From Atriophallophorus winterbourni (taxonomy: Eukaryota > Platyhelminthes > Trematoda > Plagiorchiida > Microphallidae): a stretch of 64,000 nt of DNA. This document shows positions 13,722 through 64,000 of this stretch, piece by piece. The translations under genes were made by a program, and so were the position numbers. The notes beneath the pieces were generated by a model that did no database searches, was not told the DNA's origin, and saw only the letters and a list, made by a program, of their open reading frames with translations. How positions within the stretch are numbered: position 1 is the first letter of the stretch; each line of letters opens with the position of its first letter. The stretch covers positions 1 through 64,000 of the forward strand of contig JACCGJ010018286.1 of NCBI GenBank assembly GCA_013407085.1, read 5' to 3'.

Positions 13722-14013
13722 CTGTGTTTGAACCGCGTGGTTCGTTGTATGAACCCTATGTAACAGTGCATTCATGTATAACTTTGTTTACCTCTTATCC
13801 ACTGTTTCAATGCTCACGGAACCTAATCTTACTGTCTCCACCTGATGGCGGCAAACAGCCAGAAACCGGTAGTGTTATGTATGTGCGGGGGATGTGAGCA
13901 ATCCGTAAGCGCTTTGAGTGCTTGACCAAGAATCACTAAGTGATTCTGTGTTTGAACACCGTGGTTCGTTGTACGAACCCTATGTAACAGTGCATCCAAG
14001 TATAGCTTTATAT
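13722..14013 (+). repeat. Hammerhead-bearing dispersed repeat (family D), partial dimer
   Basis: Two head-to-tail units of about 224 bp. The word TGTGTTTGAAC opens at 13723 and again at 13947. Each unit has a hairpin block (GGTTCGT-TGT-ACGAACC, complete at 13963-13979). The first unit continues through CCACTGTTTCAATG into a hammerhead-like core at 13836-13877; the second is truncated before it. Family D is homologous to the 233-bp satellite monomers, with the same order of elements. Confidence 0.72.
13836..13877 (+). ncRNA. Hammerhead ribozyme relic (family D)
   Basis: CTCCAC, then CTGATGG (core CTGATGA with the last A changed), stem II GGC-AAACA-GCC, GAAAC and ACCGGTA. The 3' strand of stem I is degraded (GTGTTA). 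The altered core base and broken stem I predict loss of activity. Confidence 0.6.
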
Positions 14014-16566: not shown

Positions 16567-16651
16567 TGTACAAACAAGTTGCGCTTGTATGCCACTGTTG
16601 GGTAAGGCTGGTACGACCAACGTGTTCAATCACATGTGCCGCCACTCATGT

Positions 16652-17130
16652 TGTTGTTGTTGGCCTCCGTCGGTCGATGTCGACCATGGATGTACATCAC
16701 ATCGCATGAATTTCATGTTTTGCAACTTTTTGAATGACTAAACAGTCCGATTCGGGAGGAACAATCTCTCCCGCAGCGCTTGCAACGATAGTCAGAACTC
16801 TGTTGTATTGCATCAGTTGCACGCCGGCGGCGTGATCTGCGTTCAGCAGACAGGAGCTGTATTTGCTCCTCCCCGGCTTGCAGTCGACGCTTTACACAAT
16901 GCCTCCAAAGTGAGCGGTCAAGAGCAAGTTCTTCCCAGCTTGCGGGGTCAATGTCAAGAGCTTTCATATCTCTTTTGCAAACATCTTTGTACCGCAAGTG
17001 CGGTCTGCACGAAGATCGACTTCCTAATTGCAATTCACCGTAGAGTAGATCTTTCGAAATACGAGCATTTTACATTCTATAGACATGACCAAGCCACCGC
17101 AGGCGGCGCTGACGTAATAGGGTGAACATG
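16652..17130 (-). mobile_element. 3' end of RTE/BovB-type LINE inserted in the satellite
   Basis: The insert is bounded by a 7-bp duplication CTCATGT (16645-16651 and 17131-17137), and the interrupted monomer resumes on the right. The - strand frame (16713-17033) is the C-terminus of a reverse transcriptase polyprotein: LRYKDVCKRDMKALDID, then a zinc knuckle CKRCGRDCSSRIGLFSHSKS. The 3' end at the left carries an ACAACAACAA-type tail. It is the same family as 34678-36330 and 59496-61700. Confidence 0.85.
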
Positions 17131-17205
17131 CTCATGTAGACTGGGTTTAAAACACATGACCATGATTATAAAAGCTCATTTGCCTGCATCTCCATCACAC
17201 ACACA

Positions 17206-17247
17206 CCCCACGACCGGTTTCGTGCTGTTTGCACTCATCAGGTAGGG
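17206..17247 (-). ncRNA. Minimal type I hammerhead ribozyme (array representative)
   Basis: On the - strand, in order: stem I 5' CCCTAC, core CTGATGA, stem II GTGC-AAACA-GCAC, core GAAA, stem III ACC/GGT with no loop, cleavage base C after GGT, stem I 3' GTGGGG. Stem I pairs over 6 bp with one G-U pair and stem II over 4 bp. All conserved core bases are present, and the cleavage triplet is GUC. Without a stem III loop the motif should work best as a dimer through the self-complementary ACCGGU. The same layout repeats in the other monomers; those at 17899, 18524 and 20144 have a C-to-A change in stem I. Confidence 0.87.
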
Positions 17248-20200
17248 ACAGTAAGATCAGGATGCGCTTGAAACAGTGGAAGACTGGTTAACAAATTACG
17301 GTTGTATGCCACTGTTGGGTGAGGTCGGTACGACCATCCTATTCAATCATATGAGCCCCCACTCATGTAGACCGTTTAAAACCCCTGGCCATGAATATAA
17401 AAGCTCAGTTGCCTTCATCTCCATCACAAACACCCCACGACCGGTTTCGTGATGTTTGCACTCATCAGGTAGGGACAGTAGGATCGGGATCAGGATGCGC
17501 TTGAAACAGTGGAAAAATTGTTAACAAGTTACGGTTGTATGCCACTGTTGGGTAAGGTTGGTACGACCAACCTATTCAATAATATGAGCCCCCACTCATG
17601 TAGACCGTTTAAAAACCATGACCATGAATATAAAATCTCAGTTGCCTGCACCTCCATCACACACACCCCACGACCGGTTTCGTGCTGTTTGCACTCATCA
17701 GGTAGGGACAGTAGGATCAGGATCAGGATGCGCTTGAAACAGTGGAAGAATGGTTAACAAATTACGGTTGTATGCCACTGTTGGGTGAGGTCGGTACGAC
17801 CATCCTATTCAATCATATGAGCCCCCACTCATGTAGACCGTTTAAAACCCATGGCCATAAATATAAAAGCTCAGTTGCCTGCATCTCCATCACACACACC
17901 ACACGACCGGTTTCGTGCTGTTTGCACTCATCAGGTAGGGACAGTAGGATCGGGATCAGGATGCGCTTGAAACAGTGGAAGAATTGTTAACAAGTTACGG
18001 TTGTATGCCACTGTTGGGTAAGGTTGGTACGACCAACCTATTCAATAATATGAGCCCCCACTCATGTAGACCGTTTAAAACCCATGACCATGAATATAAA
18101 ATCTCAGTTGCCTGCACCTCCATCACACACACCCCACGACCGGTTTCGTGCCACTCATCAGGTACGGTTGATGCCACTGTTTGAACGGACTCATGAATAT
18201 AAAATCTCAGTTGCCTGATGACCTCCATACACACACACCCCACGACCGGTTTTGGTCATAAATATAAAGCTCAGTTGCCTGCATCTCCATCACACACCCC
18301 ACGACCGGTTTCGGCTTTGCACTCATCAGGTAGGGAGTAGGATCAGGATCAGGATGCGCTTGAAAAAATGAAGAATGGTTAACAAATTACGGTTGTATGC
18401 CACTGTTGGGTGAGGTCGGTACGACCATCCTATTCAATCATATGAGCCCCCACTCATGTAGACCGTTTAAAACCCATGGCCATAAATATAAAAGCTCAGT
18501 TGCCTGCATCTCCATCACACACACCACACGACCGGTTTCGTGCTGTTTGCACTCATCAGGTAGGGACAGTAGGATCGGGATCAGGATGCGCTTGAAACAG
18601 TGGAAGAATTGTTAACAAGTTACGGTTGTATGCCACTGTTGGGTAAGGTTGGTACGACCAACCTATTCAATAATATGAGCCCCCACTCATGTAGACCGTT
18701 TAAAACCCATGACCATGAATATAAAATCTCAGTTGCCTGCACCTCCATCACACACACCCCACGACCGGTTTCGTGCTGTTTGCACTCATCAGGTAGGGAC
18801 AGTAGGATCGGGATCAGGATGCGCTTGAAACAGTGGAAGAATGGTTAACAAATTACGGTTGTATGCCACTGTTGGGTGAGGTCGGTACGACCATCCTATT
18901 CAATCATATGAGCCCCCACTCATGTAGACCGTTTAAAACCCATGGCCATAAATATAAAAGCTCATTTGCCTGCATCTCCATCACACACACACCCCACGAC
19001 CGGTTTCGTGCTGTTTGCACTCATCAGGTAGGGACAGTAAGATCAGGATGCGCTTGAAACAGTGGAAGACTGGTTAACAAATTACGGTTGTATGCCACTG
19101 TTGGGTGAGGTCGGTACGACCATCCTATTCAATCATATGAGCCCCCACTCATGTAGACCGTTTAAAACCCCTGGCCATGAATATAAAAGCTCAGTTGCCT
19201 TCATCTCCATCACAAACACCCCACGACCGGTTTCGTGATGTTTGCACTCATCAGGTAGGGACAGTAGGATCGGGATCAGGATGCGCTTGAAACAGTGGAA
19301 AAATTGTTAACAAGTTACGGTTGTATGCCACTGTTGGGTAAGGTTGGTACGAACAACCTATTCAATCATATGAGCCCCCACTCATGTAGACCGTTTAAAA
19401 CCCATGGCCATAAATATAAAAGCTCAGTTGCCTGCATCTCCATCACACACACCACAGGACCGGTTTCGTGCTGTTTGCACTCATCAGGTAGGGACAGTAG
19501 GATCGGAAACAGGATGCGCTTGAAACAGTGGAAGAATTGTTAACAAGTTACGGTCGTATGCCACTGTTGGGTAAGGTCGGTACGACCATCCTATTCAATC
19601 ATATGAGCCCCCACTCATGTAGACCGTTTAAAACCCATGGCCATAAATATAAAAGCTCAGTTGCCTGCATCTCCATCACACACCCCACGACCGGTTTCGT
19701 GCTGTTTGCACTCATCAGGTAGGGACAGTAGGATCAGGATCAGGATGCGCTTGAAACAGTGGAAGAATTGTTAACAAGTTACGGTTGTATGCCACTGTTG
19801 GGTAAGGTTGGTACGACCAACCTATTCAATCATATGAGCCCCCACTCATGTAGACCGTTTAAAACCCATGGCCATAAATATAAAAGCTCAGTTGCCTGCA
19901 TCTCCATCACACACACCCCACGACCGGTTTCGTGCTGTTTGCACTCATCAGGTAGGGACAGTAGGATCAGGGATGCGCTTGAAACAGTGGAAGAATGGTT
20001 AACAAATTACGGTTGTATGCCACTGTTGGGTGAGGTCGGTACGACCATCCTATTCAATCATATGAGCCCCCACTCATGTAGACCGTTTAAAACCCATGGC
20101 CATAAATATAAAAGCTCAGTTGCCTGCATCTCCATCACACACACCACACGACCGGTTTCGTGCTGTTTGCACTCATCAGGTAGGGACAGTAGGATCGGGA

Positions 20201-20884
20201 TCAGGATGCGCTTGAAACAGTGGAAGAATTGTTAACAAGTTACGGTTGTATGCCACTGTTGGGTGAGGTCGGTACGACCATCCTATTCAATAATATGAGC
20301 CCCCACTCATGTAGACCGTTTAAAACCCATGGCCATAAATATAAAAGCTCAGTTGCCTGCATCTCCATCACACACACCCCACGACCGGTTTCGTGGTGTT
20401 TGCACGCACCATCTAATACTTGACGTGACGTGCGGTTGGATTAATTTTGACCTCCGATATTTTTGGATATAACTTTCTTGGTTTTCATCCGATCGGTTTG
20501 ATTTTTGGATATCTATCTGAAAGCTTGCTACGTCGGATCTATTCATACAAGAATCATCCATCTTCGACGTGTCGTTCTTTGTGTACGTCAACCGTGGATT
20601 TTTCTACAGTGTGTTCGTTTATTTAAATCGCTCTTGTGTTTCTGCTGTTCGATTATCCCATCGGTGTTTATAATTGTCGGGAACTACTCGGAGAAATACA
20701 CAACGTGATATCAAATTCACGCCAAAAATCTCAAAGGGAATCTCGCAAATTAGCAGCTAAATCGAGTGAAGAAATTTTCCGACAACCCGTCATTTTCCGT
20801 CAACTCCGCCCAATACCATACAAACCAACCGCAGCCGTATCGATTTTTGTGCTCCGATTTGTACTTTTGGTTGACCCCCTTAAC

Positions 20885-21514
20885 ATGAAACAATCTGACG
20901 TTCGCGAAACGTGCGTCGTCTGCATGAAAGTTGTCAGTGGTAAGGTCAAATCTGTCACGTGTCAAAACTGTTCCCACAAATGTCACGCAAAATGTGACAA
21001 ATCATTGACCCCGGATGCACTATCGATCCTGATGGATGAAAACATGCCTGGTGTATGCTACATGTGCAAAAGTTGTCGAGCTAAACCAAACGCAGATTTA
21101 ACTGCTCGAACAATTGTTGCGCAAAGCAACCTGGATGATCGGATGCTGAGCCTGGAGCTTATCATACAAACGTTAAAGTCATCGGTAGAGACTCAAAATT
21201 CTCAGTTTGCCAGTATGTTTTTCGATAAATCGGGAACCACTGACGGTAATACCAGTCAGATAAACGCTAAATTTTCGATCTTTCAACACGAATGTTCAGC
21301 TGTTTCAAATGTGCCGGAGTGTCTTGTGGGGCGTCCTTTTCATCAAAAGGCCACCTTTACAAATGCGACTGTTAAAGGCCTGTCTGCCCAAAACATCCCC
21401 GGTCCGCAAAAAGATACGAAGCCAAAGCCACCTGCTCACCCGAAGGATCAGCGAAAACCCTTAGGTTCAAAACCAAAAGTCATGGTGCAAAACACTCCCA
21501 AAGTGGAATTATAG
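20885..21514 (+). pseudogene. LINE1 ORF1, PHD-finger part
   Basis: The start was chosen at the ATG opening MKQSDVRETCVVCMK. A zinc-finger pattern C-x2-C, C-x2-C, H-x2-C, C-x2-C is visible (CVVC, CQNC, HAKC, CYMC), fitting a PHD finger as found in ORF1 of some CR1 elements. A basic, proline-rich tail follows (PKPPAHPKDQRKPLGSKPK). The frame stops at 21514 and the expected remainder of ORF1 continues in another frame after 21770, so it is broken by frameshift. Confidence 0.75.
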
Positions 21515-21769
21515 GTATTCGATCTAAGGCAGTTGAAACGTCCAGCAACGAGCTAAAGCGCCAGGCACAGTGTAAAATCGCTCCATGGACTAAGCGTGAT
21601 TTGCACCAACGTAAAGGAAACGAGTGCCACCTTACTAGGGGACAGGTTAAAGCACGATAAAGAAGAATGGAAAAGGTTGTGCAACAACATGGACTTGGAG
21701 CCAGTTGAACCACTATCATTGATATGACTAAGTCGTAAACCTACTTCTTCAAATCTGGACCAGCCAAGA

Positions 21770-22420
21770 TTGCTCAGAATCACGGTTTGCTCTGAAAGGG
21801 ATCTTGAAAACATCTTACTATCCGCTTTTCTCCTGCGTAAGGAGCTTTCAGAGACCACTGCAAGGATCTTTGCTGATGTGCCCTGGTGGGAAAGGGCCCG
21901 AAAGGAACAGCAACAAAACCAAATGAAACAGAGGGATGATCGAAGTATAATCCTTTTGGGAGTTCCAGAAGCTGATGAAGCAACTGATAAAGCGGTGCAG
22001 CGCAAACACGATCAGTTACAATGGAGATTTCTCAGTGATATGCTTGGTTTGCATGATGTAGCTGTGACGGACACGTTCCGCATCCCCAAATCGACGAATT
22101 ATAAGGGCATCGGTCCTAAGCCCCTTAAAATAACGTTCTTGCGTAATGATATGTTGAACACGGTCAAAACTCGTTGGGAAAATGGCCGCAGAATAATTCC
22201 ACGAGAAATTAGACTAGGTACATCGAAACACCATATTGGAAAGATAGATGCACCACTAAGTTCAATAGAAACACTACCAACTCAATCAGTTGTTGACGTG
22301 TCAGAAACAATTTCAGCCGATACGATAGATCACTGTGTTCCAACAGTACAACCCCAAAACGATCAAGCATCCCTGCAAGCAAAAAACCTTCAGTTGCCGA
22401 CTCTGGAGGATTCGGCCTAA
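21770..22420 (+). pseudogene. LINE1 ORF1, C-terminal RRM-like part
   Basis: Contains RSIILLGVPEADEATDK and FLRNDMLNTVKTRWENGRRI, typical of the RRM/CTD nucleic-acid-binding part of LINE ORF1 proteins. The end (VQPQNDQASLQAK) recurs in the antisense copies at 31730-31830 and 32480-32540. No sound start codon joins it to the PHD part, so it is read as the same gene after a frameshift. Confidence 0.68.
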
Positions 22421-22482
22421 CATATATTCTGCACTCCACTAGCCTTCTTCCCCACACAAAATCCTTGTTGAGAAAAACAACT

Positions 22483-23097
22483 ATGAAATGCATCTACACC
22501 AACGCACAATGTCTCGGAAACAAAATCGATGAACTGCGTGCAGTTTTTCTGAGATGTTCACCAGACATCATCGCCGTAACGGAAACGTGGCTGCAGACTC
22601 AGCAAACAAATAGTGAACTTGAATTACCAGGAATGTCACTTATTCGTCATGACCGTGAAACCAGAGGAGGAGGAGTAGCTTTGTTTTATAGCCAAAAGAT
22701 TCTGTGCCGTGAGATTACGGATCCAGACATCGTGTTACTGGATACACTCTGGTGCTCAATCCGACTAGCTAACGGTGAAGACTGTGTTTTGGGAGTAGTA
22801 TTTCGCCCACCGTCTGCACAGGAAACTTACAATCTGGCCCTACTGGATAAAATTCGCATGGTTACTTCCAGATACACTTGTGGATTTTTGATTATGGGTG
22901 ACTTCAATTTACCGAATCTGCAGAGCAGCACCGTTTACCCAGAACACTCCCTCGAGCGCGCATTCAGTGAGTTGTTTGACGATATTCCTCTATATAACCA
23001 CATTACATGTAATACCCGATACCGCGGAAACGATTTACCCTCACTCTTAGATCTCGTTCTGACAAGCAATGAACATGACATTTATAACGTTGCTTAA
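22483..23097 (+). pseudogene. LINE1 ORF2 endonuclease domain
   Basis: Exonuclease/endonuclease/phosphatase fold with the active-site motifs TNAQ (Asn), AVTETWL (Glu), RGGGVALFY, LIMGDFNLPNL (Asp, Asn) and LLDLVLTS. A TAA at 23095-23097 cuts the frame just before the final motif SDHVVIQF, which follows in frame. The nicking activity would have primed reverse transcription; this copy is dead. Confidence 0.82.
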
Positions 23098-24365
23098 GAA
23101 AGTCCACTGGGACTAAGTGATCACGTCGTCATCCAGTTTGACTATCTGTTTGAAGCTGTAAGAACAAATGATGCCCGTAAAAGCGTTAGGCGGATCAACA
23201 CTAAGGCGTTGAGTGATACCCTGAAAAACACATTTAACTGCCAACCGGAAACCAGCAACGTACATGAGTTTTGGATATGGCTAATATCTAATCTTAAAAG
23301 TTCAATCGAAGTGAGCTCCGAATTTGTCATCAGAATCTCCAGAAAAAACGTTGAATTTAAATTAAGAAGCCGAACTCGTAAGTGGTAAACGGTACGAAAC
23401 ATTGCTTGGCGACACCATCGGCAAAACTCATCATCCGAGACCTGGGAAACATTCCGTTTACTGCGGAACAAAGTAAACAAATTTGTCATCCAAGACAAGT
23501 TGTGCTTCCAAGAAGTGATATCAAGCATGATGGAGCGAAACCCCAAAATACTATATCGTATGTTAACGATCAAGCTAAGGTGAAACCTGGAGTAGCGTCC
23601 GTGAACACATCAGCTGGACCAACAACAACTGCAACAGAAACTGCTGATGCTTTAGCCACGTTTTATTCATCGGTATTCAACCCGATAGAACATGCAATAA
23701 ACAGCCCAAATCCAACAATTTCAAACACGGTTGCCCTAAGTGAAATAAGTGTCACTGAGAAACGCATCCTCCAAGGTTTATTTAATCTTAAAACCGGAAA
23801 GTCTCCTGGGGCCGACGGAATAGCCCCGAAAATATTGAAGCAATTTGCGAGTTTGGTATACAAACCACTCACTTATCTGTTCGAGCAAACACTGGCAAGT
23901 GGAGTGATTCCTACAGATTGGAAACGAGGAATAATTTCTCCAATTTACAAAGGTGGAAATCGCTCCGATGTTTCCAATTACCGATCCGTTACTCTGTTAC
24001 CAGTGATTTCAAAATTACTTGAGCGACTCATTGTTGACGATCTAATAATCAGTTGCGTTCGAGGAACCAGCATGGATTCCGACGAAATTATTCTTGTTTG
24101 TCTAATTTACTGGTAACGCTAGATGATTGGACAAAATCGGTAAATAAATGACAAGTAATACACGCGTGCTACTTAGATATTTAAAAAGCACTCGATCGTG
24201 TTGACCATTCCCTACTACTGCAGAAGCTTGAAAGGCTTGGTATCACTGGAAAGTTGCTGAATGACTACCTAACAAATCGCACTAACCAGGTACGTGTTGA
24301 TGGTGCATTATCCAAACCAATTGCAGCAACTAGCGGAGTTCCCCAAGGCTCAGTCCTTCAAAGTA
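23098..24365 (+). pseudogene. LINE1 ORF2 reverse transcriptase, N-terminal half
   Basis: From 23700: LFNLKTGKSPGADGIAPKIL, then PLTYLFEQTLASGVIPTDWK, PIYKGG and VSNYRSVTLLPVISKLLERL, the fingers and first palm motifs of CR1-type reverse transcriptase. The stretch 24116-24350 is frameshifted but still encodes ...GVPQGSVL-like sequence. The domain is then split by the antisense insert at 24366. Confidence 0.8.
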
Positions 24366-24793
24366 ATTGAAAGTTTTAATGGTCCAAAAAGCAAATACTT
24401 TACAGTAACCACATATTAAAAATATAGGGAATTCATAAAAACAACACAAATGTTTTATACACATGGAAAGTCAGCGCGTGTATTCAGGTGCAAGGTTGGG
24501 TTTCGTCAACATATACTTGTCAAGTTCAGCCTTGAACATGTTCATTCTTGCTGCGCAAATGATTTGTGGGGGCAGGGAGTTCCATAGAAAACAGACTCTG
24601 ACAGCAAAGAAAAACCTTCGACAATTTGATCTGGAGTGTGGAATAATTAACTTGTATCCATGCGATCTGCTACCACGTGCTTCTTGCCGATGAAACAGGT
24701 GTTCAAGTGGGTGATCCACTGTATGCAGAATGTTGAACAGCAGGATCAAATCATGCCTGAGACGACGGTACGAAAAGTCAAAGAGGTTTAGCG
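24366..24793 (-). mobile_element. Antisense 5'-truncated LINE1 nested in LINE1
   Basis: The reverse strand encodes the C-terminus of the same element (LLFNILHTVDHPLEHLF, VRVCFLWNSLPPQI). Its 3' end, with GCTTTTTGGACCATTAAAAC, is at the left. The host frame reads GVPQGSVL before it and PILFLVFVNEIPDIV after it, so the reverse transcriptase was interrupted inside motif B/C. Confidence 0.83.
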
Positions 24794-27773: not shown

Positions 27774-27813
27774 TCATTACCGGTATCTGGCTGTTTGCCG
27801 TCATCAGGTGGAG
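27774..27813 (-). ncRNA. Hammerhead relic (family D), minus strand
   Basis: CTCCAC, CTGATGA, stem II GGC-AAACA-GCC and ACCGGTA are kept, but GAAAC has become GATAC and the 3' strand of stem I is lost (ATGA). Inactivity is predicted. Confidence 0.6.
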
Positions 27814-27886
27814 ACAGTAAGATCAGGCTCAGTGAACCTTGAAACATTGGAAAAGCGGTAAGGCCCATTGAACCTAATATTACTGT

Positions 27887-27928
27887 CCCCACCTGATAAC
27901 GGTAAATAGACAGAAACCCATAGGGGGT
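27887..27928 (+). ncRNA. Hammerhead relic, plus strand
   Basis: CCCCAC, CTGATAA (last G of the core changed to A), CGGTAAATAGACA, GAAAC, then CCATAGGGGG. It lies 75 bp from the opposite-strand relic and forms a head-to-head pair. Stem I (CCCCAC with GGGGGTG) is roughly kept. Confidence 0.55.
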
Positions 27929-27944
27929 GTGAGCATTGATGCAT

Positions 27945-32344: not shown

Positions 32345-32480
32345 CATAAACTGTCCCTACGTGATGGGTGCAAACAGCATGAAACCGGTCGTGGGGTGTG
32401 TGTGTGTGATGTAGATGCATGCAGCTGTGCTTTTCTATTCATGGTAATGGGTTTCAAACCTAGTCTACATGAGTTGGTTG
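32345..32480 (+). repeat. Isolated hammerhead satellite monomer fragment
   Basis: About 130 bp matching the - strand of the satellite array (GTGGGGTGTGTGTG, GATGCATGCAG, CTACATGAGTTGG). The flanking LINE1 pieces are both on the - strand, so the ribozyme strand is again antisense to LINE1, as at 20.4 kb. Confidence 0.8.
32355..32396 (+). ncRNA. Hammerhead ribozyme, core-mutated
   Basis: CCCTAC, GTGATGG (two changes from CTGATGA), stem II GTGC-AAACA-GCAT, GAAAC, ACCGGTC, GTGGGG. Stems I and III are intact, but the core changes should abolish cleavage. Confidence 0.68.
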
Positions 32481-45900: not shown

Positions 45901-48900
45901 ACGTTGAAACAGAATATCAATTTGGGTTCAATACGACTAGAAGTTATAAGGTATGCCTGAAATCAATAGCCGTACGCCAGGCAATGCTACGCGGTTGTGA
46001 ATTGCACTATGCTACGCTACCTTCCGGTTACCCGGTCTAGATAAGACTGTCACGATCCTGTTTTATTTGGTTGTTTAGCGCCATTCTAATATACAGTCAA
46101 TGATTATTATCTCCATAAGCTCTATTGCGTATTTACTCAGGCAACACTCGATCAGCTGACAGTATGAGATAACTGCTCCAATTAGACTTTACATTCTACA
46201 CCTCTATTTTCACGTTTGAAACGGCACAGGACTCGTGGATTAGTAGAACTGGTAGCATGCTGGTGTTATTATTATTATATTTGCACAATCTGATACAGAT
46301 ATAGTGCCGTTCAACATAAACAATGAGATGTACAAAGCGAGAAGGGGGTACAAAGCGTTGTCATAGGCATCGTTGAACGTAGGCATGATACTACACGGTT
46401 GCTTACACCGAAATAGGGGAGATTTCGTTTAGGGGGTCCCACCCCGAGCCTTTACCCACAAGGCAGTGGAGCGAGAGAGGTTCGCACCTATCGGTGGCCG
46501 GTGACCGACGAAGCGGTTCATACGCCCCTTTTCTGGGAATTTCCAGTTCGGAGCCCGATAACCCCGTTGATAGGTTGGTGACTTCAGTTTTTGCCTGGCA
46601 CCATACAATGTCCTTGGATAGGACAAGGGGCAGTGACTTTTGGAGCGGCGAGTCACATCCGCCGCGTCGTGATGTCATCATTGGATTTTTGTGGCTTTTT
46701 ATAGGGAGAACGCTTGCCAGGCGAAAACCCACCACACCCTCAGACACCACCGCCGAACCTTTCGCTGAGCTCGGAGAACCGAGCCCACCCAGCTGGCACC
46801 ACGTGGAGATATTTCGGCAAGCCAGCCATGCTGGTGTACACTGAATTTTTATTATTTTGCACGTATGTACAATCATGCATTATTTCGATACTGTGCTGCA
46901 AGCTGTGCTAAATTGATTTACCACCGGTAGTGAGCTGCATGCGGAAACACGATGAAATCTCACTGACATTTCTCTTTTCATTTCATCGTTATATCTGTCT
47001 AGACCCGCACTGTACTAGCCCACACACAATCTATGACTGTGTGGCGCTTTGTCTAGATCAGGCTTCATGCATACATACACGTTGCGTTTTACCATCAATA
47101 ACGAGGGTTAGCAAACATTTCACCCGCTTTGCGTATATTCCGTGTGATGACTTTCTCAGCTAATTAGCCAGCAGAGATACAACTGCAGAGGTAAACGAAG
47201 TTATCGACCAGTTTAAGTTTGGCGTCACAGATAGGTTTTAATGAGAGCCGAACCACTCCTATGTGTGTATTTTATGCACGGATGTGCAATCGTGCTAAAT
47301 TGGTTGGCCACTGGTGGTGAGCTGCGTGCTGAAACAGGCTAGAGTCTCTCTGCCATTTCTATTTTTCTTTCTCATATCTGTCTAGGCCTGGGCAACCTGA
47401 CAGTATCTCAGCCTACGTGCAGTCTCTGACTGTGCGGCACTTTGCCTGGATCAGGCTTGTGCTTTCATACCATATATGTATTTACATTTTTTATGTGCAA
47501 AACATATGCCATACTTTGAAACTTCAAGTGGCAAGCGGTCAGGGTTTGTCGCACTATGTGATGGTCATGTCCTGTAATATATATGTTGCCGTTTTTTGTT
47601 TGTTTGTATGTGTTCGTGTATATATCTGACATGTAAATAATGAAATTCTGCATGCTCTATCATATCCGAACACCTTTTAATCACTTTGAATTCACTCGCA
47701 CTTTTCTTTGTAAGTTTTTTTGTTTATTCCTCATTTTAGTATGGCGAATCACATGCTTTCATTGAGGAAATTTTGAATGATATTCACTTCATCATAAACG
47801 ATTTACGCCCGGAGCAAATTCACACCTTTTACGAAGCTGTTGGTGTGATTATCAGTGCCGAATCCACTCCCACCATCCAGAAAGACTACATTGAACGCCT
47901 CTTCAAGTTTCCAAATGAAGTAAGCTTCGGTCTCGTTTGAGTTCACTTTGTGATTGATCCGTAAACGATAATCTTTCTCTTTGTTTCAGATTTGGGATAG
48001 CATTCTGGCAAACGTTGCGTCCAATGTGGAACTGCTCAACGAAAATGAAAGAATCAAACAGCTGTGCAACATCTTGAAAACCAATCACAGCGCGTGCAGC
48101 TCGCTGGGACAGCCATACTTGGTGCAGGCAAGTAGTTATCGTTTACTGTCATTTTACAACCTATTCGACCCTGTCTCTACGAATCAGATTCCAGTTTCTT
48201 GTGAACCACGCATTGCGATATAGTTGCTCCCATAGAGGAGACTTTGCAAAATGACACAAACCAAATACGGAGGGTTTGTGACCGGCTAATATGTTAATGC
48301 TAGAGGATATCGCGACTATGGTGATGCAACATAGTGAAAATATGCATATGGGATATCACCACTTGTGTGTGTTATTTTCCTACTGGGTTACCTTTTCGAG
48401 CAAAATGAACTGGCAATACTGGTTGTGAAATTAGTTTTCGAACCGCTTACTTATCTCTAGTTCGGAGTGCGTCAAGTTATTAAAAAGCTTCATTTCGCCC
48501 TTGTGATACGCAACCCGATTATGTTTGGCTATTTGTTTAGAACAAAACCTTGATAACCCATCGATAATCAGTTCGTTGTACGAAATCTACCTTCAGAGTC
48601 TAACTTTGTTTGCCAGTTCTCCATCGTTTGAAAGCTAACTGAACTCAATCTTACGTTCTCCACCTGATGACGGCAATCAGCAAGAAACCGGCTGTGGTAT
48701 TTAATTTCATAAGATGTGAATAACTCCTTTTCTGTTCCTTATCAGGCGACTGGTGCTTGTGATTATCTCCGGTTAATTTTGCTCTAAGCTGTACAGATGA
48801 TATAATTTCAGCGACCGAACAGGGTGCTAGACTGTCCTAGTCATTTTTTCTACTATTGTTGATAAATGTGGTGGGTATGATGGTATGAAAGCACAAGCCT

Positions 48901-51900: not shown

Positions 51901-54900
51901 GATTTCTTTCGGCGGAGAACCGATTAAGCAGGAGCGTTGCAAACACTTTAGCAGCGGTGTCGATTAGACTTATTCCTCGGTAATTGGAGCACACAGATTT
52001 ATCTCCACGTTTCGGCAGTGGTAGAATGATAGACATCCCCCAGTCTGATGGGAAAACTTCCGTCTCCCAGATCGAACAAAACAGCCGATGTAGCGGAGAT
52101 AATAATACGTCGGCACAGGCTTCAATAAGTTCAACGGAAATTCCGTCCTCACCTGGCGATACCATTCTGCATTCGTCGTAAAACACTTGATATCTCGTAT
52201 TCTGATGGTGCCTCGCAGTTGACCGGGTATTCACAGCTATATATCGGGGAAGTGAATACTGCATTGATAGATGACGGGCGGTTCAGTAGCTGACTGAAGT
52301 GCTCAACCCACCTATCTATCTTTTGATAAAGGTCAAATATCATCTGTCCTGACGAATCTCGAAGGTTCGTACAAAAACCACAGCTTCCAGATGCTCTGCG
52401 AATCAGGCGAAACAGTCGTCCAAAGTCCCCTATACTTGCTGCGGCTTCCATTTCGGATGCGGTTTCCGCCCAATATAGCTGACGATCCTTGCGGGCTGAT
52501 CGTGTAGCAGCTCTCCTAAGGAGGCGATAATCAGATGCTTGCTTTGCTTTGCTTTGTGCGACTATCTCCTCCTGGAGGATGAGTCGGCTTCAAGGAAGAT
52601 TCTTGGGAATTTGGGTAAAAAGCGGCGTCCCCAGCACCACTCGGCGTTTGTTCGAGTCAGCTTCTCTAGCGTTTGCACAACCAAGTGCGACCTGCAAGGC
52701 AGCAGGGAGTTGCCAGAAAGAGGTGTCTACCAGACTCTGTTCCAGGTTTTTCCTTAGGGTTTTCTCCCGAAGCCTTTCCCGCGATCGGGTATCCCACAAG
52801 GCAGCGGAGGTTTAAAATCAGGGTTTTCCTTCCCTTAGATGAAATGCCCTCCCAGGCTAACGAGCTCCATCTGCACGAAGCAAACTGGTTTTCAGGCTCC
52901 AGTCACTCGCCCTCGCCCCTTCCCTGTTGGTAGAAGCAGTTCCGTCGGGCCGGACGAGCCCCTCGTGGCAAGACAGAAGCTGGACTGGGTTGTCAAGGCT
53001 ATTGAGACGCATGCCATTTAGGAGATTTATAATTGGGAGCTTATCCCCACTGCCCACCCCGCTATGACAACATTTGGAACCTTTGCACCATGCATTCGGG
53101 CGTCTCTTGCCCGGGCAGAGAGCTCGATGGTGTTCTGAGAAATCCAATCTCGTCGGCGGCGAGATGCCGTGCCTAGGGTTTTTAGTGCTGCAGTCTGAGT
53201 AGCGGTCTTCAGTCTGGACCACTGTTGTTCGACTGATGCATCACTCCCATCCAACCGCTCAGCGATATCGTCAATGAGCTTTTTACGTTGGGCCGGGTTT
53301 CCTAAGGCTTCCAAGTTTAAGCGCTTCCTAGGAGTTTTCCTTTGGCGGTTTAGCAGGCGAAGTCGGAGCTGTGCGCGAACAAGTGTGTGATCGGTGCCTG
53401 CTGCGTTCCCTGTTTCGGCTCCACGATAGGACCTACAGTCGAGCACCGAAGACATCCAACGTGCGCGAATTAGAACATAATCGATCTGGTTCGCCGTTCT
53501 ACCAGCGTTCGAGTACCATGTGACCAAGTGTTTTTTAGGGTGCTGGAATTTAGTGTTACAGACGCATAGGTGATTGTAGGCCGCAAACTCGATCAGTCGA
53601 TCGCCATTCGCGCAGCGCTGCCCTAGGCCAAATTTTCCCAGGATTCGGTTTGTTGCGGAATCTGCTGATCCTGTACGAGCGTTCCAGTCACCAGCCACAA
53701 CCAGTACGTCGTTTCCAGCAACTTTATCGACTACGAATTGAAGTTGGTTATAAAGTCGTCTTTTGTAGTTTGTTTGGCTGATAGAGTTGGGGAATACACC
53801 GAAACGACTGTTATATTCAAAGGGTGACCCCTCAGCCGGACCACCGCGATTCTCGGGGATACAGGCATCCATGACATGAGTGCTTGTTTAGCATGGTCGC
53901 TGAGCGCTATCGCTACTCCATGCTGACCAGATCCATCCTCGGGCCCACTATAAAAAAGCCAATAAGTACGATCGACTCCGGGGACCTTGATCGATTTGGA
54001 TCCGTGTCCGGGAAGGCGGACCTCGGAAAGACAAGCAACATCTACTTGGTATTCCAATAAAAAGCGCATCGTGATTGCTTGACTACCGACATCAAGCAGT
54101 GTCCGTACGTTCCAGCATCGCAAGATGAAAGTCCTTACGGATATTTATGGCCCCAGCTAGCTTACTTTTCACCCTAGCCGCTGGGAGAGCCAAGGGCGCG
54201 TCGCGTCTCGGGAACGCCGTAGCAGAGAATAGAATGCATTGCTAGACAAAATTAAAAATAGCGACAGAGATTTCTTATTTGCGACTCGTGACACTGAATG
54301 GCGTGAGACCATGTTTCATTCACGACGCTTCACTTTGTTTCAATTAAGGCTACGAGACATTAACCGTTTAACCGAAACAATTGTTTGTGACTTGAAAGCA
54401 GACAGGTACGACCAACCCAGACACATGTGGAGAGGAGTTGAACCCATAGGGTTGAACGAAAAATCCGTCACACACATCCCACGACCAGTTTCGTGCTATA
54501 TGCACTCACCAGGTAGGTCCGACCATGTGGCCTTATTGGATGCGAATCATTTCGCGATTACGTTTAAATTACACTCAATATGACCACTATAGTTCTAGGC
54601 CTGGGCAACCTGGCAACCTGACAGTATCTTAGCCCACGTGCAGCCTATGACTGAGCGGATTATACTTGTGCTTCCAAACATAATTCGAGTTTATTTGTAT
54701 TTTTGCAGGTATCTGAGATTGGTTTGAATATTCTACACACGATGCTGAACAACATGGCAAATGCGAGTGTGGAACAACGTGCGGTGTTTTTCAAGACCTT
54801 TTTCATTGACATCATGCAGCACATGTTCGCCGTCATCACGGACCGATCACAAACTGGACGTGAGTTTTTTCCCGGTTGCACATTTGTCGTGATGGTGACG

Positions 54901-57949: not shown

Positions 57950-58625
57950 AGAGTAGTTGAGCTAACATTTCACCAAAGAGATGCTCGTTTGAGGAAAGTC
58001 AACCTACATGCGCGATCCTATATTCAGCTAAAATAACGATTCTTCGCGCGTATCTTCTGACAATGTATGAGACTTCAATATCGACTCTAAATTAGCGCAA
58101 ACTGGGTGTGATCAGCGTCTTTCAAGTTGAAACCGCGTCCGAGAATGCGTTGTTCGTTCTCAGTAAGGGGTCTGTTGGATAGGTTCTTGACCAAAAGTTC
58201 CCCGCTGGTATTGTCCTGATAAGGGGTGATATATTGAATTTTGTTTTCCAGGTCACGTCGCTTGTTGGTTTTTCGGGTCGTTATTGTGATGGCGTTTTCT
58301 AAACGTTGCGTCAGTTCAGGTCCAAATCGGTCTTCACACTTTTGTTTTTCAATGTTGATTATGTCTGCGTATTTCTTCAGGCGATTGTGTGCATCTGAAA
58401 TGTGCATTCCCAGCCATTCTTGGTTTTGATGTTCCATTAGTTTGCATGCACGTGGATTGTTGATTGGGGGTCGTCGTTGTAAGGATTTCGGGGTCAGGTT
58501 TCTGCGTTGGCACTCGTGTAGGAAAAAGAGTTGTTCATAGGTTGCAGCTGTTCTTCCACTAAAGCTTTCCCAGCGTCTGGCGTTTTTAAGCGTTGATCGC
58601 CCAAATTGTTCAGCAATAGAGGAAA
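57950..58625 (-). mobile_element. Penelope-like element, N-terminal region (inverted part)
   Basis: The reverse strand encodes LVKNLSNRPLTENEQRILGR then GFNLKDAD (58087-58437), the conserved N-terminal motif of Penelope-like reverse transcriptases. Upstream are the basic helices HNRLKKYADIINIEKQKCED. A second frame (58494-58682) is offset by a frameshift. The RT itself is absent on this strand. Confidence 0.72.
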
Positions 58626-58649
58626 ATATGCGTAGCTCAGGATGTGGAT

Positions 58650-59412
58650 GGTGCTCACCTTGTGTTCACAGCAAGCACCCAAACACTCACAAACGCAGTT
58701 GCGTCAGAACTCTATTCAAAAGAGCGGCAACCCACTGCAGTACAGATGAACTGAGGAGAAAAGAAGAAGAATATCTGTTCAAAGTTTTCCAGAAAAATGG
58801 ATATCCAAGAAGCTTCATACTACGCAACAGGTCCAACCGCCCACAACAAAGAACCCCAGAAGAAAACAGAAGCAGACGCACTCTGCCCTACATTTAACAT
58901 ATCTCCGAAATCGCAGCTCGGGTGCTTCGGCCACTTGGAATCGACATCGCGCATAAACCAGCATCAACACTTCGCAACCACTTCAACAACACGAAAGATG
59001 AAGTGGCAAAAGAACAACAGTCGAATATCGTCTACAAGATTTCATGCAGAGAATGCGAAAAGAACTACGTCGGACAAACGGGTCGCAAACTCAGCACAAG
59101 ACTACATGAACATCAGTTGGACGTACGCAGACATGACCAGAATTTACTGATTTCAATACATGTTGATCAATTTGGGCATCAGTTCGACTGGGACCGCACA
59201 AGAATATTAGGCAGAGGAAACGACCGACGGGCGCGAGAATTCCTGGAAGCAACAAATTTAATTAACCAGCATCTCAAACTGGCTGCAACACATGGACCAA
59301 TGGGAAACCGCTCACGGAGAAGGCATAACATAAACTCGACCAATCCGTGGGAGTACCCGTGAACGGACAGGCAAACGAATTCCAACTACAAGACGCTTCG
59401 AAAAAAGTTTTG
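58650..59412 (+). mobile_element. Penelope-like element, RT end and GIY-YIG endonuclease
   Basis: KRSCVRTLFKRAATHCSTDE and YLFKVFQKNGYPRSF are the end of the RT domain. After a frameshift near 58895, the GIY-YIG nuclease reads SNIVYKISCRECEKNYVGQT then GRKLSTRLHEHQLDVRRHD (58922-59362), with the Cys pair between the two half-motifs that is typical of Penelope. It is opposite in strand to the N-terminal part. Confidence 0.85.
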
Positions 59413-59451
59413 CTGATGATGTCATCTAGCCTGATGACAAAACGTCCAAGA
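59408..59451 (+). ncRNA. Hammerhead-like motif after the Penelope-like ORF
   Basis: CTGATGA (59413-59419), one extra T, stem II GTCATC-TAGCCT-GATGAC (6 bp, perfect), AAAA where GAAA is expected, minimal stem III AC/GT and triplet GTC. Stem I is GTTTTG with CAAGAAC (about 5 bp). Penelope-like elements are known to carry hammerheads with short stem III. The G-to-A core change suggests an inactive relic; chance resemblance is not excluded. Confidence 0.4.
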
Positions 59452-59495
59452 ACAACTATGCAAGCTCGGCGAACACAAGGTGAACACCGTACATA

Positions 59496-61861: not shown

Positions 61862-64000
61862 CTATTCATCCAAGACCTCTACCAGACTTGACGGTTTTCC
61901 ATTATTTTTCTTGGCAGGAGTCGACAGTAGATTGGGCAGGCGTTCCAACAAGTCACGCAATTCGCTTTGTGTACGACAGTAGAATCCCACGGCACAGCTC
62001 GGGTCTAGGCTTTCGGCTGACATAGCCCTGGGCGTTCGACAGTGCCAAGACTAAATTAGGTGACGAAAAAGGAACATAAGCATTATAATAACCGAAAATG
62101 GTCATTGTAAGAAAACTAGAGAAACGTTATATCATAAATGAACCAATGGAGTAACCGTGATATGCACCTAGCGTTTGTGGTCTACAGACTGCGGGTCAGA
62201 ATTTTAACCAATTGCGCGCGGTGAGATCAGACGCTCATGAGAACAGATAATACGAAGTGATCACACCTCTACGCTACCAATCTATCAGAACAGATAATAC
62301 GAAGTGATCACACCTCTACGCTACCAATCTATCAGCTATCATGTCTTTGCTTTTAGCAAACATTCTTTGACGTTTAGAAATAACTGTCAACAAGAAAATC
62401 GGTATTTCCAGAATGGTTCTTTCAACATTATCGCAAAACTACATAGCAAGGAGAAATACTTGTATCAAGTGCGGACTCACATACCACACCCCAGTTTCCC
62501 GAGTGTCGGTCAGTATCAGATGGGGGCAGTTCGATTAGATTCGATGAGACATGGCTACAATTTGAAGTTAAAGTGTATAAATCGGGTGGCTAGATGAGTA
62601 CGGATGCACGCAAGGTCAGAAACTACATACGGGCTCAGATACTCTCGGTCTCACGGTCCTACACAGGCATAACGGAAATGGAAAGTGACCGTGGCACTCC
62701 AGCGTGTTTCCAAGTGCAGCTCGGTACCGGTGGAAATCAATTCAGCACTGCTTTCTAAAATTGCATAAAATATGAAACCTACCTAGATATTGTTATATAA
62801 GTTTACATTGTATTGGTCGTATTTGAAACTGGTTTACCCCTTATATTGAACTCCAGCACGCGGAGGCAACTGAAGTCACTAAGGCTGGAACACATGCGGT
62901 TAGAAAGATAGCCAAGGATGAATATGGCACGAGACGTTGCGACGGAGAAGTGTTAATTATGGTAAAATTTTCCAATCGTTATAACCTAGTTAGCTTTATG
63001 CACAATTGTCACACGTTCAGCCGTGTGTCTATTGACCTTGACCGATTTCACGCTGCGCTGGGTGAATGAGGTGATTGATCTAGACACGACTTGACAGCCC
63101 TGGGGTTTCAATGGGCTGTTTCGTGATAGGACCGATTAGATGTGGTGGTTAGAGTACTAGTTAATCCCTATTCTGACGAAGCTTCTTTTCCAGAAGTGAA
63201 AAACTGCTCTAACCTATGCAACAGTGGCGTTCAAATATAACCTTGTTTACCATTTATCCACTGTTTCAAGGCTCACTGAACCTAATCTTACTATCTCCAC
63301 CTGATGACGGCAAACAGCCAGAAACCGGTAGTGGAGTGTAATTTCGGGGGGACGTGAGCAACACATTACTTTGGTCATCCATAAGCGCCTTGTGTGCTTG
63401 AACACAAATCACTATGTGATTTTGTTTGAACATCGTGGTTCGTTGTACGAACCCTATATAACAGTGACATTCAAGTATAATCTTGTTTACCATTTATCCA
63501 CTGTTTCAAGGCTCACTGAACCTAATCTTAGTGTCTCCACCTGATCGCGGCAAACAGCCAGAAGCCGTTAGTGGAGTGTAGGTTCGGAGGATGTGAGCAA
63601 CACATTATCTACGGTACCGTTTCCATGATGCTGGTAAGCAAACTGACAATATTGACAACATTTACATCGATTCCTTGAAGCAAACCGTAGAGTAGGTGAG
63701 AAACTTTACAATTTCCAGAAATAAACGTTCGAGTTAGTGAGAATCGGACAACTCGCGGCGAATTAGCAAAGTGATGATAACTTATGATTAAGGCAAAAAT
63801 GACAGTCACTAAGGTACCTTGACGGAAAAATCTGCTCTCTCGACATCAGCCATAAACAGTTGGGTAAAATGGGGGTCCAAAAATACCAACTGCCTTTGAT
63901 CGGGCTCGCTAGCGACGACGTAGATTGAGTGTCTGGGACGGCCACCGATGAGTCCCAACATACAGGGATCTAGAAACAGTTGGCAGACCATTGGTACGTA
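61862..64000 (-). CDS. ATG4: ATG4 autophagy cysteine protease, last two exons (partial)
   Basis: ATG4 cleaves the C-terminus of ATG8/LC3 precursors and delipidates membrane-bound ATG8. Two - strand exons are visible: 63818 to beyond 64000 (open at the window edge) and 61862-62050, ending in TAG. They join in phase 0 (donor AAG/GTACCT, acceptor CTAATTTAG/TC). The upstream exon reads YVPMVCQLF, then LGLIGGRPRHSIY and VFLDPHFTQLF. The DPH pair corresponds to the catalytic Asp and His of the family. The last exon begins SWHCRTPRAM and continues SLDPSCAVGFYCRTQSEL, matching the conserved HC-x2-PR-x-M and DPS-x-x-VGF(Y/F) block. It ends in a short tail (SSLVEVLDE). The catalytic Cys lies in exons outside the window. 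The intron (62051-63817) holds hammerhead-bearing repeats, a degenerate family A SINE and a 47-bp tandem duplication. The HCxxPRxM and GGRPRHS spacing looks ATG4D-like, but the paralogue was not resolved. Confidence 0.87.
62241..62334. repeat. Perfect 47-bp tandem duplication
   Basis: The unit GAACAGATAATACGAAGTGA and on to ATCTATCA occurs at 62241-62287 and again at 62288-62334 with no difference. It lies in the ATG4 intron. A recent slip or an assembly artefact are both possible. Confidence 0.85.
62600..62745 (-). repeat. SINE-like family A, very diverged
   Basis: Weak collinear words: GTCAGAAACTACATACGGGC, ACTCCAGCGTGTTTCC, GTGCAGCTCGGTACCGGTGG, AATCAATTCAGCA. It is one of the oldest copies. 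Confidence 0.5.
63295..63336 (+). ncRNA. Intact family D hammerhead ribozyme
   Basis: Stem I CTCCAC with GTGGAG (6 perfect pairs), core CTGATGA, stem II GGC-AAACA-GCC closed by a C/A mismatch at the base, GAAA, stem III ACC/GGT without loop, triplet GTA (cleavable NUH type). All catalytic core bases are present. This is the copy most likely to be active outside the array. Confidence 0.82.
63535..63576 (+). ncRNA. Hammerhead relic, second unit of the dimer
   Basis: Same layout as its neighbour, but the core reads CTGATCG and GAAA has become GAAG; stem III is ACC-GTT-like. Stem I is still perfect. An inactive partner next to an intact one. Confidence 0.65.

What the first reader, a model, noticed from the sequence alone, without database searches (positions are those of the whole stretch)
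17138..20405. Satellite array in which each intact monomer encodes a self-cleaving hammerhead ribozyme
About fourteen 233-bp monomers. On the - strand at least twelve carry the full order stem I, CTGATGA, 4-bp stem II with AAACA loop, GAAA, ACC/GGT, cleavage base, stem I. Conservation is concentrated there. Hammerhead satellites are known from schistosomes, newts and cave crickets, and tandem hammerhead units that yield circular RNA are called retrozymes. I infer that this array is a retrozyme-like locus: a transcript from the - strand would be cut into 233-nt unit RNAs able to circularise.
Basis: partly seen in the sequence, partly recalled or inferred. Interest (0 to 1): 0.92.

Follow-up and report, generated by a model that had tools for sequence, protein, structure and literature searches.

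The report
Paired-hammerhead RNA hitchhiker repeat array
This is a repeat whose RNA looks able to cut itself only in pairs, and its scattered copies suggest that it spreads by borrowing the copying enzyme of Penelope-type jumping genes, which bears on how such animal elements move.

Summary
The minus strand carries an array of ~233-bp units (17131-20411, plus a piece at 16572-16651 beyond a LINE insertion). Twelve units have a type I hammerhead core; Rfam gives E 1.5e-5 to 0.026, all below its gathering score. Helix III is only the palindrome ACCGGU without a loop, so two units must pair; cofolding gives the known double hammerhead. Within the array the ribozyme is not better conserved than the rest. 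The core 30-mer occurs 3,450 times in the 537-Mb genome. Of 58 sampled insertions, 23 have exact target duplications of 9 bp or more (control 5 of 580). Copies end mostly at two unit positions, A (median 42 nt after the cleavage site) and B (~151); 9 of 14 head-to-head pairs have both ends classed, each one A and one B. Penelope-like elements (PLEs) of this genome end 42 nt after a hammerhead-core-like string (6 of 12 copies) and are also tandem or head-to-head. Best reading: a non-LTR retrozyme copied by PLE enzymes. Cleavage, circles and the PLE role are inferred. Species unnamed, probably a flatworm.

The parts
17131..20411 (-). tandem array of ~233-bp hammerhead units (13 full-size, 2 rearranged, partial ends)
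16572..16651 (-). last piece of the array beyond the LINE insertion; ends at site B (unit position ~150)
16652..17130 (-). LINE fragment inserted in an array unit; CATGAG at both sides and an (AAC)n-like tail, by eye
17206..17247 (-). hammerhead, 32.9 bits
17433..17474 (-). hammerhead, 25.3 bits (one stem II pair broken)
17666..17707 (-). hammerhead, 32.9 bits
17899..17940 (-). hammerhead, 29.6 bits
18524..18565 (-). hammerhead, 29.6 bits
18757..18798 (-). hammerhead, 32.9 bits
18992..19033 (-). hammerhead, 32.9 bits
19219..19260 (-). hammerhead, 25.3 bits (one stem II pair broken)
19452..19493 (-). hammerhead, 23.1 bits
19683..19724 (-). hammerhead, 32.9 bits
19916..19957 (-). hammerhead, 32.9 bits
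20144..20185 (-). hammerhead, 29.6 bits
18138..18302 (-). two rearranged short units (59 and 106 bp)
32351..32472 (+). dispersed degenerate copy of the unit
54464..54517 (-). dispersed degenerate copy of the unit
63215..63579 (+). older, diverged ~1.5-unit copy (69% identity)
13723..13885 (+). older diverged copy (74% identity)
48606..48700 (+). older diverged copy (72% identity)
27779..27932 (.). older diverged copies in head-to-head order (- at 27779-27861, + at 27870-27932)
58665..59488 (+). 3' part of a Penelope-like element; GIY-YIG match E 0.0037, below Pfam's cut-off; ends exactly 42 nt after its hammerhead-core-like string
58087..58664 (-). probable inverted arm of the same Penelope-like copy, head-to-head; its first letters are the PLE +42 end and tail letters (by eye); no Pfam match
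59431..59446 (+). hammerhead-core-like string of the PLE (CTGATGACAAAACGTC), without stem II

Best explanation
The array is a locally expanded copy of a non-autonomous, ribozyme-bearing retroelement (a metazoan non-LTR retrozyme). A minus-strand transcript would place two adjacent units so that their palindromic ACCGGU strands form one shared 6-bp helix III, giving a double hammerhead in which each core cuts the other unit. This would release 233-nt RNAs, which a cell ligase could close into circles. A single circle lacks a partner and should be stable. The RNA is then copied into new sites by the reverse transcriptase/endonuclease of PLEs in the same genome: both strands of the target are cut, each end can prime at an internal site of the RNA, one at A (about 42 nt after the cleavage site) and the other at B, and copying runs round the template for up to several units. 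SHOWN by sequence: array, ribozyme motif, dispersed copies, target-site duplications, two main end sites, A/B ends on the classed head-to-head pairs, an end near +42 in both retrozyme and PLEs. INFERRED: transcription, cleavage in pairs, circles, PLE enzyme as the mover.
For: Motif and Rfam hits. Cofold of two 58-nt hammerheads gives the double hammerhead as minimum energy, -37.7 against 2 x -16.8 kcal/mol. In tandem dimers the constrained double hammerhead lies 1.2 and 0.1 kcal/mol above the optimum for two unit types, but 13.0 for a third. 3,450 exact 30-mers in the genome. Exact target duplications >=9 bp: 23 of 58 against 5 of 580 mismatched pairings; >=11 bp: 14 of 58 against 0 of 580. 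Of 70 outer 3' ends, 47 lie in class A (32-56), 11 in B (144-158), 12 elsewhere; the 47 A ends have median 42, 30 of them at 40-46. Adjacent segments: 14 head-to-head, 3 same-direction, 1 tail-to-tail; 9 of the 14 pairs have both ends classed, all nine A plus B. Two more A/B pairs in L073 and L085; L083 has 43 and 143, one base outside the B class. PLE: one ORF with reverse transcriptase (E 1.9e-7, over the cut-off) and then GIY-YIG (E 0.031, under it). PLE main family: 6 of 12 copies end at +42, 5 run on into one shared stretch, 1 diverges near +19. PLE neighbours within 8 kb: 18 same-direction, 5 head-to-head, 0 tail-to-tail. Published PLE traits match: two internal start sites and extension of both strands (PMC11167929, parts 1-3 of 4 read); head-to-head inverted repeats, 8-10-bp target duplications, optional tail on one arm (PMC3846280, passages).
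Against: The array hammerheads all fall below Rfam's gathering score. Unconstrained folding of tandem dimers prefers local misfolds. The shared-rare-variant test for a circular template was weak: 14 shared in 8,780 positions within insertions against 234 in 243,238 between (1.66-fold). 35 of 58 insertions had no exact duplication of 9 bp or more. 5 of 14 head-to-head pairs have an end outside the classes. The retrozyme's A end is blurred, not sharp: agreement with the interior consensus falls from 0.85 at +41 to 0.63 at +42-44 and 0.41 at +46 in the ATATTTTG type, while the PLE end is sharp. The array shows no target duplication that I could see; its 5' side abuts a LINE. Four PLE loci contain no Rfam hammerhead up to E 1, and the PLE string lacks stem II. 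No target duplication was found for three PLE copies. Site B does not match the PLE tail end (near +80, by eye). Letters at A and at the PLE end differ.
Confidence: 0.7

Rival explanations
1. Retroelement as above, but moved by a LINE enzyme through ordinary target-primed reverse transcription with twin priming, as human L1 moves Alu.
For: LINEs are abundant in the window; target duplications, 5' truncation and inverted 5' arms also occur with LINEs (recalled; papers seen only in the listing).
Against: L1 twin priming is not known to me to use a fixed second site (recalled), whereas the two arms end at A and B in the 9 pairs with both ends classed, of 14. An end near +42 is shared with PLEs. 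The LINE in the array has a different, (AAC)n-like tail (by eye).
Confidence: 0.17
2. Plain satellite DNA: the array grew by unequal exchange and the hammerhead is a relic with no RNA role.
For: A 462-bp higher period is reported beside the 233-bp one and blocks look duplicated within the array (by eye); no excess conservation of the ribozyme within the array.
Against: Dispersed copies with target duplications and preferred ends; stem pairing kept beyond shuffles in 76 distinct stem combinations: 606 of 760 cells paired (shuffle mean 566, maximum 585), 25 double-change cells (shuffle mean 12, maximum 23). Shuffles ignore kinship. Exchange inside the array and mobility elsewhere are compatible.
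Confidence: 0.08
3. The template is a linear multi-unit transcript, not a circle; cleavage only trims RNA and is not needed for mobility. (Overlaps with the best explanation, from which it differs in the template only.)
For: In an Anolis PLE, ribozyme mutants do not affect insertion in vitro and uncut RNA is the main template (PMC11167929). The circle test here is inconclusive.
Against: Circles of this size are documented for animal retrozymes (PMC7229834, parts 1-4 of 6 read). L012 carries three rare variants shared between its units, as repeated reading of one circle would give.
Confidence: 0.35

Closest known systems
Metazoan non-LTR retrozymes (Cervera & de la Pena 2020, PMC7229834, parts 1-4 of 6 read)
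   Same: Type I hammerhead in tandem repeats, RNAs of ~170-400 nt, low GC, thousands of copies, target duplications longer than 4 bp when present; platyhelminths are named among the carriers.
   Different: Most invertebrate members are described as cutting efficiently as single motifs; here helix III exists only between two units. The insertion anatomy (A/B ends, +42) is not described in the parts that I read.
Newt/axolotl satellite hammerhead HHR_Amex1 (same paper)
   Same: A single base pair capped by a palindromic tetraloop; cuts efficiently only as dimer.
   Different: Repeat of 330 bp in axolotl against 233 bp here; I did not compare the sequences.
Minimal type I hammerheads of Penelope-like elements (Cervera & de la Pena 2014; Lunse et al. 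2017; neither held, known from PMC7761336 passages)
   Same: Helix III reduced to next to nothing; said to act in pairs.
   Different: Here the motif sits in a short unit without a reverse transcriptase; in the four PLE loci looked at, only a core-like string without stem II was found.
Penelope/Poseidon PLE integration (PMC11167929, parts 1-3 of 4; PMC3846280, passages)
   Same: Two internal start sites, both target strands used, head-to-head arms, 8-10-bp duplications, tail on one arm.
   Different: The passenger is a 233-nt ribozyme RNA; the second site lies 109 nt from the first instead of a 30-40-nt tail. In the Anolis PLE the cut lies at +26 and the start at +111-118 of the ORF, so its spacing is ~85-92, not 42.
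Schistosoma mansoni W-elements / SMalpha hammerheads (PMC8490949, passages)
   Same: Flatworm tandem repeats with minimal hammerheads of extremely short stem III; one presumptive target duplication is mentioned.
   Different: Units of other lengths; sequences not compared here.

Membership tests
Metazoan non-LTR retrozyme | Type I hammerhead in short tandem repeats (150-450 bp) | tested here: met
   (hammerhead scores below Rfam's gathering score, see RF00163 row)
Metazoan non-LTR retrozyme | GC below 50% | tested here: met
   2-kb windows over the array 0.446-0.470
Metazoan non-LTR retrozyme | Dispersed mono- and multimeric copies with target duplications longer than 4 bp | tested here: met
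   23 of 58 with exact duplications of 9-15 bp against 5 of 580
Metazoan non-LTR retrozyme | No protein coded | tested here: inconclusive
   The only ORF of 110 aa or more in the array runs antisense to the ribozyme through the repeats (19732-20235 +); it was not searched for relatives
Metazoan non-LTR retrozyme | Expressed as unit-length linear and circular RNA | not testable with these tools
   no RNA data
Metazoan non-LTR retrozyme | No LTR, primer binding site or polypurine tract | not tested
   -
Rfam RF00163 Hammerhead_1 | Score at or above gathering (34 bits) | tested here: not met
   12 units at 23.1-32.9 bits; another hammerhead of this genome, L061:2924-2968, scores 39.3
Dimeric (double) hammerhead | Self-complementary helix III too short to close alone | tested here: met
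   ACCGGU without loop; GAAACCGGT intact in 133 of 159 motif instances (a set found by a pattern that itself allows only 1 change there)
Dimeric (double) hammerhead | Cuts as dimer, not as monomer | not testable with these tools
   folding only
PLE-type integration | Head-to-head inverted arms inside one target duplication | tested here: met
   8 of 14 head-to-head pairs have an exact duplication of 9 bp or more: L012, L015, L023, L026, L032, L035, L040, L058
PLE-type integration | Two internal start sites | tested here: met
   58 of 70 outer ends at A or B;
PLE-type integration | Same start site as PLEs of the genome | tested here: inconclusive
   PLE end sharp at +42 in 6 of 12 copies; retrozyme A end has median 42 but is blurred; second site and letters differ
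Penelope-like element itself | Reverse transcriptase and GIY-YIG in the unit | tested here: not met
   a 233-bp unit cannot code them; they are present in L071:289-1968 of the same genome (GIY-YIG below Pfam's cut-off)

The most novel reading that the evidence does not exclude
The hammerhead is first of all the docking mark and ruler of the PLE reverse transcriptase: copying starts about 42 nt downstream of it, in the retrozyme with an intact ribozyme and in PLEs whose core-like string has no stem II and, in some copies, a changed catalytic C3. Self-cutting in pairs would be a second trait that lets the short RNA free itself and circulate. The retrozyme would then be to PLEs what a SINE is to its LINE.
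Probability: 0.27. Interest if true: 0.85.

Novelty: new variant of a known kind. Interest (0 to 1): 0.62.

Why it matters
PMC7229834 names PLEs only as a strong candidate for moving animal retrozymes, and PMC7761336 calls the role of hammerheads in PLEs a mystery (parts and passages read). The copies in this genome give concrete, testable marks: two end sites, one on each arm of the classed pairs, and an end near +42 shared by ribozyme element and PLE. I saw no account of these marks for animal retrozymes in the listings or in the passages that I read; the library lacks most subscription papers and the two key PLE-hammerhead papers. A ribozyme that works only in pairs would also explain how a circle avoids cutting itself; [quoted passage not shown]

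Tried and rejected
Conservation concentrated in the ribozyme within the array: not found. Whether units of one insertion resemble each other more than those of others: raw identity gave mixed ranks and shared rare variants only 1.66-fold, so the circle is not shown. PLE as carrier of the same hammerhead: four PLE loci have no Rfam hammerhead up to E 1. Copies starting at the cleavage site itself, as expected if cut linear RNA were the template: 5' ends are not visibly enriched there; the sample is small and partly selected for the ribozyme. Two further hammerhead families (L063, L061) showed no direct repeat of 9 bp or more near +42. Target duplications of three PLE copies (window, L070, L072) were sought and not found. 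The viral contig collection has no exact copy of the 26-base core. Naming the species by its COX1 failed: the gene was found but could not be fetched. No relative of the PLE protein among solved structures up to E 1 by sequence.

Mended on re-check: I first counted a second PLE family (L030) as ending at +42 in 2 of 2 copies. The two are arms in head-to-head order in one locus; one ends at +42, the other runs on into letters like the PLE tail (by eye), so I count it neither for nor against. The sharp +42 end of the retrozyme came from rows picked by a pattern that reaches to +42; without that choice the end is blurred over about +41 to +45.

Limits of the samples: the 60 large loci came from the first 100 of 3,450 listed places and contain the exact ribozyme 30-mer, which favours A ends; 95 segment groups were reduced to 59 (identity 83% or more, 60 bp or more) and to 58 with enough flank; L041, a large array, was left out of those counts. 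Segments up to 40 bp apart were joined as one insertion; L030 has two head-to-head segments 153 bp apart that both end at A, not counted as a pair; a 10-bp duplication flanks the first of them alone, so I take them as two insertions. The 20 small slices were picked from places with end A whose exact 30-mer was not listed nearby; in L076, L080 and L087 an arm runs off the slice. Of the 12 PLE copies, 4 came from the best protein matches (L069 is the window's own copy) and 8 from the listed places of a 46-base pattern.
Full report
What is there. The minus strand of 17131-20411 is a tandem array of ~233-bp units. Sixteen AACCGGTC sites give 15 intervals: 13 of 227-235 bp and two rearranged ones of 59 and 106 bp. 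Twelve units carry stem I, CTGATGA, a 4-bp stem II with AAACA loop, GAAA and ACCGGT (10 exact cores, 2 with one change that breaks a stem II pair; none in 100 shuffles). Stem I is an unbroken 6-bp helix in 8 of the 12. Rfam's Hammerhead_1 matches the twelve, E 1.5e-5 to 0.026 for the 3.8-kb stretch and 2.5e-4 to 0.44 for the whole window, but each score is under the gathering score of 34 (best 32.9), and the default search reports nothing. The array is longer than reported: a LINE fragment (16652-17130) with CATGAG at both sides interrupts a unit, and the rest of that unit lies at 16572-16651. Within the array the ribozyme is no better conserved than the rest (3.1% against 3.4% differing cells).

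The ribozyme. ACCGGU is a palindrome without room for a loop. Two copies can pair it into one 6-bp helix III. The minimum-energy cofold of two 58-nt hammerheads is the double hammerhead, with each 5' stem I strand paired to the other copy's 3' strand (-37.7 kcal/mol; two single folds give -33.6). In tandem two-unit RNAs the constrained double hammerhead is 1.2, 0.1 and 13.0 kcal/mol above the free optimum for three unit types. This is the state described for the salamander hammerhead HHR_Amex1, a single pair capped by a palindromic tetraloop that works as dimer (PMC7229834), and for minimal PLE hammerheads (PMC7761336, passages). Over 76 distinct stem combinations from 153 of 159 motif instances, pairing exceeds shuffles (606 of 760 cells, shuffle maximum 585; double-change cells 25, shuffle maximum 23). 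Shuffles ignore kinship, so this is support, not proof. A second, related set of copies has stem I CUCCAC/GUGGAG where the first has CCCUAC/GUGGGG, and its stem II starts with a C-A mismatch.

The genome. The window lies in an unnamed assembly of 537 Mb, with 1,654 + 1,796 exact 30-mers of the core. The closest protein to a LINE of the window is an unnamed metagenome protein at 72%; the closest named ones are from the tapeworm Spirometra (56%) and cephalopods (56-57%). For the PLE's GIY-YIG region only three relatives were found, one named, the fluke Dicrocoelium at 51%. A flatworm is likely, not shown.

Dispersed copies. In 60 loci I mapped 113 segments outside L041. Fifty-eight insertions could be tested: exact duplications of 9 bp or more flank 23 of 58, against 5 of 580 mismatched pairings; of 11 bp or more 14 of 58 against 0 of 580. 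Of 70 outer 3' ends, 47 lie in class A (32-56), 11 in B (144-158), 12 elsewhere; the A ends have median 42, 30 of 47 at 40-46. Of neighbouring segments, 14 are head-to-head, 3 in the same direction and 1 tail-to-tail. In nine of the 14 head-to-head pairs both outer ends are classed, and each has one A and one B; in five an end falls outside the classes. Drawn independently at 47:11, nine of nine would have a chance of about 2e-5 (my arithmetic; it ignores selection). Small slices add A/B pairs in L073 and L085, and L083 with ends 43 and 143. Eight of 14 head-to-head pairs sit inside one exact target duplication of 9 bp or more, L023 with 4.15 units on one arm and 1.82 on the other. The array in the window itself ends at B.

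The link to Penelope-like elements. One ORF of L071 holds a reverse transcriptase (Pfam RVT_1, E 1.9e-7, over the cut-off) followed by GIY-YIG (E 0.031, under the cut-off), the make-up of a PLE. A search with the GIY-YIG region scored 150 of 7,539 candidates in the genome, and the 150 match. Among these, neighbours within 8 kb are 18 same-direction (14 of them 2,506-2,534 bp apart), 5 head-to-head, none tail-to-tail. Downstream of the GIY-YIG region stands CTGATGACGAAACGTC, a hammerhead core without stem II; a 46-base string around it occurs 126 times. In the main PLE family 6 of 12 copies end exactly 42 nt after it, 5 run on into one shared stretch (diverging near +80, by eye), and 1 diverges near +19. 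In L030 two PLE arms stand head-to-head; one ends at +42 and the other runs on into tail-like letters (by eye). In some copies the C3 of the core is changed (ATGATGA, TTGATGA); C3G abolishes cutting in the Anolis PLE (PMC11167929), so the string is probably not kept for cutting. The retrozyme's A end is centred on +42 but blurred: in 27 terminal copies of the ATATTTTG type agreement with the interior consensus is 0.85 at +41, 0.63 at +42 to +44, 0.41 at +46; in 22 of the other type 0.82, 0.50-0.64 and 0.27. Some blur is expected where target letters match the element. Several of the 22 rows listed for the second set of copies also end at about +41 to +43, by eye. The window's own PLE copy ends at +42 and looks head-to-head (58087-59488).

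How it likely works. Transcripts of the array cut themselves pairwise; unit RNAs may be closed into circles; a PLE reverse transcriptase starts at A, or at B, primed by the cut target ends, both strands being usable. An Anolis PLE starts at two internal sites and extends both strands (PMC11167929), and rotifer PLEs show head-to-head arms, 8-10-bp duplications and a tail on one arm (PMC3846280, passages). The first half of this chain rests on motif and folding; the second on insertion anatomy. The template could be circle or multimer; the test here does not decide.

Verdict. A known kind (metazoan retrozyme), in a paired-ribozyme form, with insertion marks that tie it to PLE enzymes more concretely than the accounts I could read. 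The PLE link is the best-supported inference, not a demonstration: no LINE 3' ends were surveyed, and the second start site differs from that of the PLEs.

Noticed in passing
L063:747-815 (+): A different hammerhead (stems GCACAC/GUGUGC and GCGG/CCGC) with the same ACCGGU palindrome; Rfam HH9 42.7 bits, below its gathering score of 52.
   Followed up: partly
L061:2924-2968 (-): A third hammerhead type with helix III CUCGAG; Rfam Hammerhead_1 39.3 bits, above gathering.
   Followed up: partly
genome G000: PLEs stand in tandem with a period of about 2,530 bp and in head-to-head pairs.
   Followed up: yes
genome G000: 24 COX1 matches on several contigs, many with TAA or TAG stops inside: nuclear copies of mitochondrial DNA or several mitochondrial contigs.
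   Followed up: no
17131-20382: A 462-bp period is reported beside the 233-bp one, and unit variants recur in blocks (19224-18998 and 17438-17212 look alike), a sign of exchange or duplication inside the array (by eye).
   Followed up: no
20627-25742 (+): ORFs with endonuclease and reverse transcriptase matches (a LINE) start close to the 5' side of the array; in L046 a 3.9-unit copy seems to sit in the same LINE's first ORF (by eye).
   Followed up: partly
5913-6434 and 44979-45812: Matches to EF-Tu and to exportin-1 (CRM1) lie in the window.
   Followed up: no
L041: A second large array, about 8 kb in one orientation; 20 full units were cut out by a pattern.
   Followed up: no
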